Part shown: piece after piece, positions 43,701-52,700 of the stretch
Layout of the letters: the number at the start of each line of letters is the position of its first letter
Position numbering within the stretch: position 1 is the stretch's first letter
From: Protula sp. h YS-2021
Taxonomy: Eukaryota > Annelida > Polychaeta > Sabellida > Serpulidae
DNA: 64,000 nucleotides
Assembly (NCBI GenBank): GCA_949752745.1
Contig: OX457031.1
Coordinates: 19,278,199-19,342,198 of the forward strand
Reading direction: 5' to 3'
The notes under the pieces: generated by a model
Databases searched by the model: none
The model's input: only the letters and a program-made list of their open reading frames with translations
What the model was told of the DNA's origin: nothing
Made by a program: the position numbers and the translations under genes

Positions 43701-46700
43701 CATGAGAGAGCATAGGTGAAATAATAATGTTAATAATAATAACCATAATCAAAATCATAATCACAATTATAATCATAAAAATCGTAACAATTCTCAAACA
43801 AAACTCACCCTTATCTCTCACATTAGTACTTAAAACTGAAGGATATTTAGTGATTGAAGTGGCTGCAAAATAAAACTAGAACCTCACTTCGCTAGCGAAA
43901 TGTTAAACACTTGACAAAAATTAAAACGCACAAAAACTTCCTTCAATGGGTTATTTCTTGAATAATATATTGCAAACAACACAGCTTGAATACGTCTTAT
44001 AAGCCGAGTAGTGTTTGGTTTCTGTTGACTTAAGGTTTTATTGACTTATCTAGCATACGCCGTGTATTTACGCAGTGAGAGCTCGCACAAAGCTCACTGA
44101 GCAACTGTGTGTGATGTGGGTTAAATGCCACGCATTTACTTGCAAAAATACACTCTTTTCACATGGCGGTTTGACAAAGAAAACGAAATCAAAGACGAAA
44201 ATAAAAAGTGACATGCACATGTTCAGATCAAGCTCTTCGTAAGTCCCAAGTTTCATGGTCGTAGGGCCCATAGTATCAGAGAAGAAGAAGACACAAAAAA
44301 TCGGAAAAAGTGTCAAGAAGAAAAAAAAAAAGGACGAATTTTGCTCGCACAAATTCATATAACTCTTGCAAGCCAAAGGCTTGTCAAGTGTTAATGAGTC
44401 CTCCGTGCAAAATATCTGTAAAATAAGTGACCCTGACCTTGGCGGTGGCGTCGACCCTCCGCCTGACCTGGTTCAATGATTGTGTGTACTCGGGACTGTC
44501 ATCGTTGTTGCTTTGTTCGCCTGGCTTACCCACGAAGTCCTCGTGACGGGTATTCATAAACGACGTCTCCGCGTCCACGTGTATCAACAGATGGGTCTGT
44601 AAACAAGAATACAACCCCCCCCCCCCCAACTCCTCGTTATGACTTATAGTTAACGAAGTGGCTGTTGGTAAACTCACAGTGGTTCCAGGCAAAAAGCTCC
44701 CTCCCCCCCCCCGGTAAAAGCGCCCTCGGTAATAACCTCCCTCNNNNNNNNNNNNNNNNNNNNNNNNNNNNNNNNNNNNNNNNNNNNNNNNNNNNNNNNN
44801 NNNNNNNNNNNNNNNNNNNNNNNNNNNNNNNNNNNNNNNNNNNNNNNNNNNNNNNNNNNNNNNNNNNNNNNNNNNNNNNNNNNNNNNNNNNNNNNNNNNN
44901 NNNNNNNNNNNNNNNNNNNNNNNNNNNNNNNNNNNNNNNNNNNTCTACTATCTGTAATTGTATTTTTGATATCTCTAAATGTACTCTTGATTATTGATAT
45001 CAAAAATAGTAGTTGAGAAACGAGAGTTCTGGCACAGGAAGTGACGTCATCATGACGTCAGGAGGTGTGCTAGAACTCTCATGAGAGTTCAAGCACAGTG
45101 AGTCATAATGACGTCATAGGATGTTCTGGAACAGATATTAAAGCGCGCGCCCGTGTCAATGACGTCATCATGACGTCATTCGTCACGTGACCTGTCAATC
45201 ATGTGTCACATGACCTGTCAATCATGTGTCACATGACCTGTCAATCATGTATATGAGGAAAATTTTCCCGATCATAAACCTTCTGGCCTGAATGGCTCAG
45301 TTGGTAGAGCGCAGGGCCCGTGAGCGGACCCATGATCTGAAGGTCAATGGATCGAACCCGCCCTCGGGCATCACTTTCATATCATGGGGACCCCCCCCCC
45401 CCCCCCCCTGGTGAAGAATCATATACCATTGGGACCCCCCCCCCCTGGTGAAGAATCATATACCATGGGACCCCCCCCCCCCCCTGGTGAAGAATCATAT
45501 ACCATGGGGACCCCCCCCCGTGAAGAAGTATATCATATCATGGGACCCCCCCCCCCCTAGGATGTGATTCAACACTCCTATAAGAGCACATTGTCTGTGC
45601 ACATATGCATCATTCATGCTCTGACTGCCGTTGGATACACATGGAAAAAAAAAAGTGAAAACAGTTGCTCTTACCTATTGTGTTGTGCTGTGCTGTTGAA
45701 GAACAAGTGAAGGATTGACTGGAATACACATAGGAGACGAAGTGAAACTAGGATGTGATTCAACACTCCTATAAGAGCACATTGTCTGTGCACATATGCA
45801 TCATTCATGCTCTGACTGCCGTTGGATACACATGGAAAAAAAGTGAAAACAGTTGCTCTTACCTATTGTGTTGTGCTGTGCTGTTGAAGAACAAGTGAAG
45901 GATTGACTGAATACACATAGGAGACGAAGTGAAACATTAGTTATTCTTTGAAAAGGAAAGTGAACGATTGGTTATTCTTTGGAAAGGAAGTGAAAGATTG
46001 AAGAAGAATTGGCAAAACAGTCGTGGTAAGTGACTTTTTTTTTTTTTTTTTTTTTTTTTTTTTGGTTTGTGTTCACTTTTATGACTCTGTGACATTATGT
46101 GACAACATGTGACTGTGACATGTGACTCTGTGACATTATGTGACTGTGTGACTTTTTTTATTTTTTTTTTTTATTATTATTATTATGATAATATTTAATT
46201 AGTCATATTTCAATGGTTTCCCCATTACAGTAACCACACACATAGCATAAGTACATGTGTACAGAGTGTGGGGGGAAAACCGACTGAGAAATTTTAGAGT
46301 GCACTCGTACAGAGTGTGGGGGGGAAAACCGATCGATAATTTCAGAGTGCACTCGTACAGAGTGTGAGGGAAAACCGATCGATAATTTCAGAGTGCACTC
46401 GTTCAGACCGTGGGAACGATCGATAAATTTGAAAACATCAAAGGCCTAGACCGTGGGAACGATCAATAAAAATCAGAGTGCACTCGTTCCAGAGCGTGGG
46501 ATTTTCCCTACGTTAAGTCCAATGTTATGTTTTAAGTTATAGTAGTTGGAAAATGACACTTCTAAAACACATTTAACAAATGTAGTTTTTTGATAACATA
46601 TAATATATAAAATAAGTTTGAACATTTTAGCATTCTACTTATTTGAATGTTCTAAAGTCATAGTAGTAGAAAAATGGTGGTTCTAGACCAACTTTAGCAA

Positions 46701-49700: not shown

Positions 49701-52700
49701 GGTACCTTTTATGCTCTATAGGGAGCTGTCACACTCGAGGTTGGACACACTATGTCCTAAAATGTTTAGAAATAACTTAACTCTATGCGACTTTGCAGCT
49801 AATTGTAAGATTTCGAACAAATGTTGCATTTATACATCCTTTCGGTTCAACCTACACTATTCAAATGATGAGAAAGTCTTTAAACATAGCTTTATATACA
49901 ACTTGTTGAACATGTTCAACAACATGTTGAACAACAACATGTTGAACAAGTTGAACATGTTGAACATGTTGAACAAGTTGAACATGTTGAACATGTTGAA
50001 CATGTTGAACATGTTGAACATGTTGAACAAGTTGAACATGTTGAACATGTTGAACATGTTGAACAAGTTGAACATGTTGAACATGTTGAACATGTTGAAC
50101 ATGTTGAACAAGTTGAACATGTTGAACATGTTGAACATGTTGAACATGTTGAACCTGTTGAACATGTTGAACCATTTGTTGAACAATACCACGACGTAAT
50201 ATCTTTCAAAAATTATTCGAACACGTGTTTTGAATGGGCTTGCCATTCGAACACGTCTTTAAAATGGGCTTGCCATTCGAACACGTGTTTTGAATGGGCT
50301 TGCCATTCGAACACGTCTTTAAAATGGGCTTGCCATTCGAACACGTCTTTTGAATGGGCGCAGTTTTCCTACATAACTATCCACATTTTTACTTTTCATT
50401 TTCCAACAATCAACCGATCAACCAAGTGGTAGAATCGTCTGAAACGTGTAAAAAACTAAATTTGTTAAAGTTGGTTTAGAACCCTGATTTTTACCTTACT
50501 ACACCATGGTAAAATGTTCAAACTTATTTTATACATCATATGTTGTCAAAAAACAAAATTTGTTAAAATTGGTCTAGAACCACCATTTTTACCCTACTAG
50601 ACCATGGTTAAATGTTCAAACTTATTTTATACATCATATTTGGTCAAAAAACAAAATTTGTTAAAATTGGTCTAGAACCGCCATTTTTCCACTACTATGA
50701 CTTTAGAATATTCAAATAAGTAGCGTGCTAAAATGTTCAAACTTATGTTATATATCATATGGTGTTAAAAACTAAATTTGCTAAAGTTGGTCTAGAACCA
50801 CCATTTTTCTACTACTATGACTTTAGAACATTCAAATAAGTAGAATGCTAAAATGTTCAAACTTATTTTATATATTATATGTTATCAAAAAACTACATTT
50901 GTTAAATGTGTTTTAGAAGTGTCATTTTCCAACTACTATAACTTAAAACATAACATTGGACTTAACGTAGGGAAAATCCCACGCTCTGGAACGAGTGCAC
51001 TCTGATTTTTATTGATCGTTCCCACGGTCTAGGCCTTTGATGTTTTCAAATTTATCGATCGTTCCCACGGTCTGAACGAGTGCACTCTGAAATTATCGAT
51101 CGGTTTTCCCTCACACTCTGTACGAGTGCACTCTGAAATTATCGATCGGTTTTCCCCCCCACACTCTGTACGAGTGCACTCTAAAATTTCTCAGTCACTT
51201 ACCACGACTGTTTTGCCAATTCGTCTCCAATCTTTCACTTCCTTTCCAAAGAATAACCAATCGTTCACTTTCCTTTTCCAAAGAATAACTAATGTTTCAC
51301 TTCGTCTCCTATGTGTATTCCAGTCAATCCTTCACTTGTTCTTCAACAGCACAGCACAACACAATAGGTAAGAGCAACTGTTTTCACTTTTTTTCCATGT
51401 GTATCCAACGGCAGTCAGAGCATGAATGATGCATATGTGCACAGACAATGTGCTCTTATAGGAGTGTTGAATCACATCCTAGTTTCACTTCGTCTCCTAT
51501 GTGTATTCCAGTCAATCCTTCACTTGTTCTTCAACAGCACAGCACAACACAATAGGTAAGAGCAACTGTTTTCACTTTTTTTTTTCCATGTGTATCCAAC
51601 GGCAGTCAGAGCATGAATGATGCATATGTGCACAGACAATGTGCTCTTATAGGAGTGTTGAATCACATCCTAGGGGGGGGGGTCCCATGATATGATATAC
51701 TTCTTCACGGGGGGGGGTCCCCATGGTATATGATTCTTCACCAGGGGGGGGGGGGTCCCCATGATATGAAAGTGATGCCCGAGGGCGGGTTCGATCCATT
51801 GACCTTCAGATCATGGGTCCGCTCACGGGCCCTGCGCTCTACCAACTGAGCCATTCAGGCCAGAAGGTTTATGATCGGGAAAATTTTCCTCATATACATG
51901 ATTGACAGGTCATGTGACACATGATTGACAGGTCATGTGACACATGATTGACAGGTCACGTGACGAATGACGTCATGATGACGTCATTGACACGGGCGCG
52001 CGCTTTAATATCTGTTCCAGAACATCCTATGACGTCATTATGACTCACTGTGCTTGAACTCTCATGAGAGTTCTAGCACACCTCCTGACGTCATGATGAC
52101 GTCACTTCCTGTGCCAGAACTCTCGTTTCTCAACTACTAAAAATGATTTAATGAAATCTAAAATTGATTTTTGAGATCAAAAATTCAGTTCTTGACAGCA
52201 AACACGAAATGTTTCAGAGCAAAATATCGATTTTGAGCTCAATAATTCATTTTCTTTTTATTGATATCAATAATTTATTTCAGATATCACTATTTCAGAA
52301 TGATACTTTTTAAATTTGTATTTTGAAATCTGCAAATGATTTGTTGATCTCAAAAACTGATTTTTGATATCAAAATATCAGTCTATTTTTTAAAGGAAAA
52401 ATTCAGAAACACACGTCTGTTACAGTAAATAAATAATAACTGGTTCTTGTATACAGAATCTTTCTCTATTATTTTTTACTGCACAAAAAAGAAGCAAATT
52501 CTTGAGATCAAAAATTGTGTTATTATTATTAATCTCAATAATTCAGGTTTTCATCTCCAACATTTAATTGACGATTCGTTATATTTTATGTAAATATGTG
52601 TCTCTCTTATGATTTTTTAAGTTTGTAAATTTGATTTTTTGTTCTCAGAAATAATACTTTGCCATCTAAAATTCAATTATTTATAGCGAAATATAAATTA

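What the first reader, a model, noticed from the sequence alone, without database searches (positions are those of the whole stretch)
45007..52139. A mobile element with long inverted arms, a zinc-finger gene, a PC4-like gene and no recognisable transposase
Seen: near-identical inverted arms of 2.3-2.7 kb, two intact intronless genes facing each other in the centre, and insertion inside a known dispersed repeat. Known: PC4/SUB1 domains bind single-stranded or melted DNA, and C2H2 fingers bind nucleic acid. Inferred: the pair belongs to the element and may act on its DNA. I know of no established transposon class defined by a C2H2 acidic protein plus a PC4 protein. Either it is non-autonomous but gene-bearing, or one of these proteins takes part in a new way of moving DNA.
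Basis: partly seen in the sequence, partly recalled or inferred. Interest (0 to 1): 0.88.

Follow-up and report, generated by a model that had tools for sequence, protein, structure and literature searches.

The report
Two-gene satellite of a Maverick element
The window holds one of very many copies of a small jumping element that carries two genes but no mobility enzyme and has the same ends as large virus-like Maverick elements in the same genome, so it most likely moves by borrowing their machinery.

Summary
The element is window 45008-52138: 7,131 bp, long inverted arms, AGTAGT...ACTACT ends, a 6-bp duplication (AAAAAT), and two facing genes, C2H2 zinc-finger (244 aa) and PC4 (180 aa). The claim of no known class is not right: (AGT)2//(ACT)2 ends with 6-bp duplications are reported for vertebrate Mavericks (PMC8097293). 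In the same genome, end pairs 14-19 kb apart bear the same end words. Three of three sampled share 19 terminal bases and have perfect 6-bp duplications; 4 of 16 contain an open rve-integrase frame. PC4 is also a Maverick gene here: 43 of 52 places of one PC4 family lie within 2 kb of an integrase. So it is a non-autonomous, gene-bearing Maverick, presumably mobilised in trans. Only the best 150 C2H2 matches were scored; 145 of 150 lack stops. PC4 adjoins in 20 of 20 fetched copies. C2H2 looks constrained in the one subfamily comparison made (dN/dS 0.22); PC4 is unresolved. What the two proteins do is inferred. Boldest reading left open: a true satellite that manipulates its helper.

The parts
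45002..45007 (.). left target-site duplication AAAAAT
   Evidence: sequence
45008..47689 (+). left inverted arm (first word AGTAGTTGAGAAACGAGAG); enters the start of the C2H2 gene
46032..46281 (.). stretch of about 250 bp present only in the left arm (borders approximate)
   Evidence: alignment of the arms; letters
47119..47263 (+). 30-bp tandem repeats in the arm
47306..47542 (+). about 26 copies of a 9-bp repeat (GTTCAACAT) next to the C2H2 gene; candidate binding array (inferred)
47641..48375 (+). C2H2 gene, 244 aa: two zinc fingers, acidic linker, helical domain
48548..48747 (+). 28-bp tandem repeats between the genes
49109..49651 (-). PC4-domain gene, 180 aa; PC4 domain at residues 110-155
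49789..52138 (-). right inverted arm, ends ...CTCAACTACT
49936..50172 (-). 9-bp repeat array of the right arm
52139..52144 (.). right target-site duplication AAAAAT
   Evidence: sequence
10862..12306 (.). second, shorter related element in the window (left end AGTAGTATGAAAAGAGGGG; right end decayed, border approximate), keeping a 70-bp piece around the end of the C2H2 gene at 11373-11442

Best explanation
A non-autonomous, gene-bearing Maverick/Polinton. Shown: it carries Maverick-type ends and 6-bp duplications, and shares its first 19 bases and C-rich pieces of arm repeat with end pairs about 16 kb apart in the same genome, some of which hold an open rve-integrase frame about 70% identical to one that is fused to a chromodomain. 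Inferred: that integrase, supplied in trans, inserts the small element; its DNA is copied by a Maverick polymerase and perhaps packaged in helper capsids; the long arms are the sites the helper recognises. Inferred: the C2H2 protein binds repeats in the arms and acts as a regulator or origin/packaging factor, and the PC4 protein, a Maverick-type single-stranded-DNA binder, assists replication or late transcription.
For: Ends and 6-bp TSD against the published Maverick motif. End pattern genome-wide: 847 forward and 862 reverse against 5 and 14 for the control pattern. Of the first 100 listed places, 31 adjacent +/- pairs under 25 kb (1.5 expected), 27 of 31 with the same 16-base word at both ends; 16 are 14-19 kb and 6 are 5-9 kb. 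Three of three sampled ~16-kb pairs have perfect TSDs and 19 identical terminal bases (the TSD of L042 read by eye, the script printed a shifted border). 4 of 8 integrase hits on C1 below 39.93 Mb lie inside 14-19 kb same-end pairs, which cover 0.67% of that stretch, 3.3-4.0 kb from an end; 0 of 8 lie in the six 5-9 kb pairs. PC4 beside an rve+chromo integrase and an Adeno_IVa2-like ATPase; 43 of 52 PC4-132 places within 2 kb of an integrase hit (56 of the 111 integrase hits were entered, so a lower bound). A PC4-like ORF 1.2 kb from an adenovirus-protease-like ORF upstream of a polymerase, both below Pfam's cut-offs. Own right arm closer than any other element's left arm in 12 of 14 elements; median 97.8% within, 86.0% between. 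C2H2 dN/dS 0.22 (0.12-0.40).
Against: No polymerase was shown in the same-end ~16-kb elements: 0 of 3 PF03175 hits in that part of C1 fall in any pair. Their capsid genes rest on recall: three ORFs of L041 gave no Pfam match, and the first gave no viral-contig or PDB match. Integrase was found in 4 of 16 large pairs only (111 of 9,352 first-look candidates were scored), and 4 of the 8 hits lie in no listed pair. The arm sequence shared with the ~16-kb elements beyond 19 bases is C-rich repeat compared without a low-complexity filter. In L011 and L016 another element's arm is as close or closer than the element's own second arm. Trans-mobilisation itself is not observed. PC4 dN/dS 0.98 (0.46-2.66) from the window copy and 0.80-0.85 from four others does not show that PC4 is kept for a function.
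Confidence: 0.88

Rival explanations
1. Plain internal-deletion derivative: a Maverick lost its core and happens to retain two accessory genes, which are passengers without use for the element.
For: PC4 genes occur in integrase-bearing elements; same-end pairs under 5 kb exist (7 of 31); PC4 dN/dS near 1.
Confidence: 0.3
2. A self-sufficient transposon in which the C2H2 or PC4 protein is a new kind of transposase.
For: No other gene with a recognised domain was found in the window element; the C2H2 model has no fold match at E 0.001 or better.
Against: Same-end elements with an rve integrase; ends and TSD of Maverick type; PC4 also found in integrase-bearing elements; neither protein shows a nuclease or recombinase profile.
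Confidence: 0.03
3. A cut-and-paste transposon of another superfamily with 6-bp duplications (e.g. Ginger2, IS3EU, Dada) that converged on these ends.
For: Ginger2 targets 6-bp AT-rich sites (passage read); the others recalled.
Against: Ginger2 ends are TGTNR, here AGTAGT/AGTAGG; same-end ~16-kb elements carry a Maverick-type integrase.
Confidence: 0.03

Closest known systems
Maverick/Polinton elements (vertebrate set, PMC8097293; passages and section 7 read)
   Same: (AGT)2//(ACT)2 ends, 6-bp duplications, inverted repeats, genes on two strands pointing to the centre
   Different: 7.1 kb instead of 12.7-24.6 kb; arms up to about 3.2 kb (L013) instead of 46-1,447 bp; two recognised genes only, no polymerase, integrase, ATPase or capsid gene found
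MITE-like and other non-autonomous DNA transposons (recalled)
   Same: share ends with an autonomous element, no mobility enzyme
   Different: keeps two open genes, one of them apparently constrained
Satellites of viruses such as phage P4, adeno-associated virus, virophages (recalled)
   Same: small genome with own genes that depends on a larger virus
   Different: no evidence of particles or of interference with the helper; known here only as genomic copies
PC4/SUB1 proteins (PDB 1pcf, 4usg, 6ycs)
   Same: PC4 domain; E 4.9e-6 to 8.8e-6 by sequence
   Different: long N-terminal region rich in basic residues, C-terminal CxxC tail; encoded by a mobile element

Membership tests
Maverick/Polinton (as non-autonomous member) | (AGT)2//(ACT)2-type end motif | tested here: met
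   AGTAGT or AGTAGG at both ends; 30 of 30 inverted terminal bases in each of the 14 elements delimited by script, which asked for at least 22; motif in PMC8097293. AGTAGG is a one-base variant of the published motif
Maverick/Polinton (as non-autonomous member) | 6-bp target-site duplication | tested here: met
   15 of 21 perfect, 1 of 21 with one mismatch, 5 of 21 not testable
Maverick/Polinton (as non-autonomous member) | long terminal inverted repeats | tested here: met
   longer than the published vertebrate range
Maverick/Polinton (as non-autonomous member) | shares ends with an integrase-bearing full-length element | tested here: met
   same words; 19 bases and TSDs in 3 of 3 sampled; integrase inside 4 of 16 large pairs; those 4 are not among the 3 sampled
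Maverick/Polinton (autonomous) | own protein-primed PolB, rve integrase, packaging ATPase, protease, capsid genes | tested here: not met
   only C2H2 and PC4 gave Pfam domains in the window element; two further frames recur in 13 and 12 of 14 elements (130-222 aa, and a second kind from 103 aa up) but run into the 9-bp repeats and vary in length; I take them as repeat-coded, untested
Maverick/Polinton (the ~16-kb helper) | capsid genes | tested here: inconclusive
   L041 ORFs look capsid-like by recall; no Pfam match; first ORF no viral-contig or PDB match
Maverick/Polinton (the ~16-kb helper) | protein-primed PolB | tested here: inconclusive
   PolB loci exist in the genome but 0 of 3 in the examined part of C1 fall in same-end pairs
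Virus satellite (P4/AAV-like) | replicates or is packaged only with a helper virus | not testable with these tools
   needs biological material

The most novel reading that the evidence does not exclude
This is a true satellite of an (apparently animal) Maverick virus-like element: a separate lineage with its own selected genes that uses the helper's integrase, polymerase and perhaps capsid, and whose C2H2 and PC4 proteins redirect helper replication or expression to its own long arms, as P4-type satellites do with phages.
Probability: 0.4. Interest if true: 0.85.

Novelty: new variant of a known kind. Interest (0 to 1): 0.66.

Why it matters
My literature searches listed no paper on gene-bearing dependants of Mavericks (open-licence PMC only, and most of the papers listed were not read). 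A small element with an apparently constrained DNA-binding gene, in at least 150 near-identical copies in a genome that also holds same-end integrase-bearing elements, makes it possible to ask how Mavericks replicate, which proteins act on their ends, and whether Mavericks have satellites as phages do. It also links PC4 proteins to Mavericks.

Tried and rejected
Reading as a class of its own: rejected by ends, TSD and same-end integrase-bearing elements. PC4 in the large protein database: 6 candidates, none at E 0.01. C2H2 in viral contigs and prokaryote genomes: no relatives; PC4 in viral contigs: none; end pattern in viral contigs: 0. C2H2 fold against viral and PDB libraries: nothing at E 0.001 or better; the best-ranked matches are mostly zinc-finger proteins. 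Rfam on the window: nothing. tRNA scan: 0 in the window; tRNA-Thr in both arms of 1 of 20 copies, L013. Within-copy substitution counts were dropped: for PC4 they are spoiled by a frame-shifted copy (L025), and copies had been picked from a score-ranked list. Common ancestry of the C2H2 fingers and the fingers at the start of the Maverick polymerase ORF: only about 18% identity, E 0.003-0.005, not claimed.
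Full report
Observation. The arms, the two facing genes and the target duplication are real. The element is 45008-52138 with AAAAAT on both sides. The arms are nearly identical, except for a poly-C-rich indel, a stretch of about 250 bp found only in the left arm, and a few small differences, and they run into the first 49 bp or so of the C2H2 gene. The arms hold tandem repeats of 120, 98, 46, 30, 23 and 9 bp.

Genome. The window lies in an unnamed 863-Mb assembly at C8:19278199-19342198; that it is an animal is my inference from its gene and repeat content. 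A search with the C2H2 protein scored the best 150 of 6,480 first-look candidates; all 150 matched at 97-100% identity (149 over all 244 residues, one over residues 1-243), and 145 of 150 had no stop. I fetched 20 stretches around these hits, four of them chosen because the hit carries a stop. PC4 lies next to C2H2 in 20 of 20; its frame is open in 19 of 20 (L025 is frame-shifted). Perfect 6-bp duplications: 15 of 21 with the window; one mismatch in 1; not testable in 5. Lengths are 5.8-8.5 kb in the 14 elements delimited by script. One copy (L021) has the gene block twice in tandem.

Class. PMC8097293 (passages and section 7 read) gives (AGT)2//(ACT)2 as the commonest end motif of vertebrate Mavericks, with 6-bp duplications. 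The window element starts AGTAGT and ends ACTACT; some copies start AGTAGG. The same genome has family B polymerase PF03175 (84 matches). Of nine stretches fetched upstream of polymerase hits, three, all of one polymerase family, have AGTAGT at the point where homology between copies starts; the other six were not delimited, and one of them (L032) shows no AGTAGT/AGTAGG word at all.

Helper. The end pattern AGTAGKKRRRAAACGA occurs 847 times forward and 862 times reverse, against 5 and 14 for the reversed control. Only the first 100 places (C1 to 39.9 Mb) were listed. They form 31 adjacent facing pairs under 25 kb (1.5 expected), 27 with the same word at both ends: 7 under 5 kb, 6 of 5-9 kb, 2 of 9-14 kb, 16 of 14-19 kb. 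Four of the six 5-9 kb pairs contain a known C2H2 or PC4 hit. Three large pairs were sampled at their ends: 19 terminal bases equal the window's, the duplications are ACTTTT, ATGGGT and ATTATA, and L042 shares C-rich arm repeat with the window (85% over 85 bp) and with L012 (77% over 233 bp), compared without a low-complexity filter (for L042 the script printed a shifted border and I read the duplication from the letters). A Maverick-type integrase (rve E 1.7e-13 plus chromodomain) used as query gave 111 matches, 111 of 9,352 candidates being scored. Of its 8 hits on C1 below 39.93 Mb, 4 lie inside large same-end pairs, 3.3-4.0 kb from an end, and 4 in no listed pair; the large pairs cover 0.67% of that stretch. 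The four inside are about 70% identical to the query and without stops. A 1.5-kb piece from the middle of another large pair (L041) has three open frames on one strand that remind me of Maverick capsid genes; Pfam gives no match, and for the first frame viral contigs and PDB gave none either, so this is recall.

PC4 is a Maverick gene here. PF02229 scored 150 of 5,119 candidates, all 150 over the cut-off; 52 have a 132-aa frame and 35 a 191-aa frame. In L038 a 127-aa PC4 gene lies next to the integrase, with an Adeno_IVa2-like ATPase beyond it and two further frames on the other side. 43 of 52 PC4-132 places have an integrase hit within 2 kb. Two of the other nine lie 8.76 kb from a polymerase hit (3 PC4-polymerase pairs under 30 kb in all, 0.5 expected); one of these (L040) is 99.7% identical to L038 over 1,203 bp and holds the start of the integrase frame, so 43 is a lower bound. 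In L035, upstream of another polymerase, a 120-aa frame matches the window PC4 (39.8% identity, E 1.1e-11; Pfam 23.6 bits, just under the cut-off of 25) about 1.2 kb from an adenovirus-protease-like frame (E 0.0026, also under its cut-off). The one PC4-191 copy read (L039) is a sister two-gene element, PC4 81% and C2H2 87% identical to the window's.

Selection. Between the window and L039, C2H2 dN/dS (Nei-Gojobori) is 0.22 (bootstrap 0.12-0.40) and PC4 0.98 (0.46-2.66). With four other copies against L039, C2H2 gives 0.22-0.30 and PC4 0.80-0.85, the latter with wide intervals. All of these use the one sister copy L039. C2H2 thus looks constrained; PC4 is undecided. Relatives of C2H2: 29 proteins at E 0.01 or better (weakest P0029 at 2.5e-9), 23-50% identical in the alignment, nearly all from short unnamed contigs, so the family is probably not confined to this genome; their context is unknown. 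The model has two fingers and a helical domain (mean pLDDT 76.5, pTM 0.42) without fold matches at E 0.001 or better.

How it probably works. Over the outer 1,500 bp, the two arms of one element are 88.7-99.5% alike (median 97.8%, median coverage 1.0; 14 elements); left arms of different elements 86.0% by median with coverage 0.71 (0.06-1.00; 182 ordered pairs). The own second arm is closer than the best other element in 12 of 14; in L011 and L016 it is not, and L009 and L011 are 97.6% alike. The two arms thus tend to be homogenised together. I take this as a sign of copying through a stage in which one arm templates the other, as with protein-primed linear genomes (inference). The integrase of same-end elements would insert the copies. 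The C2H2 protein may act on repeats in the arms and PC4 on single-stranded intermediates or late transcription (inference). Why a dependant keeps a constrained gene is the open point: either the gene acts mainly on its own DNA, or copies travel as separate units between cells and compete, as virus satellites do.

Limits. Lists were capped, so counts are lower bounds, and absence of C2H2 from large pairs is only suggestive (4 of 8 C2H2 hits in 5-9 kb pairs, 0 of 8 in large ones, 4 of 8 in no listed pair). No polymerase hit was found in same-end pairs (0 of 3). Other recurring frames of 100 aa or more in the elements run into the 9-bp repeats and vary in length; I did not test whether they are expressed. 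Literature searches cover open-licence PMC only: Polinton with PC4 0 papers; transposon, terminal inverted repeats, PC4 domain and C2H2 together 0; PC4 with Mavericks 3, unrelated by their titles (listing seen); virophage with PC4 0; six phrases for non-autonomous Polintons 0; three of Maverick/Polinton/non-autonomous/cargo 50 papers, 20 listed, of which I read passages only, of PMC4028283, PMC2836005 and PMC10294476.

Noticed in passing
window 10862-12306: A shorter element with related ends and TTGAACATG-type repeats keeps 70 bp around the end of the C2H2 gene (87%); its right end is decayed.
   Followed up: partly
G000, PF02229 places: PC4-domain genes are greatly amplified in this genome in several families (132-aa and 191-aa frames and others).
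   Followed up: partly
L021 (C1:37183566-37193565): A copy with the C2H2+PC4 block duplicated in tandem, 2,435 bp apart.
   Followed up: no
C1:16527053-16530054 and C1:18660765-18663378: The end word recurs in the same orientation three times at about 1.49-kb and 1.30-kb steps, as if Maverick ends had become tandem repeats.
   Followed up: no
C1 pairs under 5 kb, e.g. 34040755-34041120 and 10722495-10723824: Very short same-end pairs, perhaps MITE-like relatives.
   Followed up: no
L029-L032, L035-L037: The frames leading into the Maverick polymerase begin with two C2H2 fingers (MFSKP start in L029-L032, L035 and L037; fingers also in L036) (Pfam run on L030 only).
   Followed up: no
window 45285-45372 and 51774-51861 (approximate): tRNA-like stretch in both arms, seen by eye; ARAGORN calls none in the window and tRNA-Thr only in L013, in both arms.
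   Followed up: partly
C5:28717970 (-) and C5:28723094 (+): Two polymerase hits head to head 5 kb apart, probably too close for two full ends between them.
   Followed up: no
L035 and L038: The 211-aa frame beside PC4 in L038 has a relative near the PC4-like frame in L035, so the PC4 neighbourhood may be conserved between two Maverick lineages.
   Followed up: no
window 37092-39127: Frames that look like a DIRS-type retroelement (recalled, no profile search).
   Followed up: no
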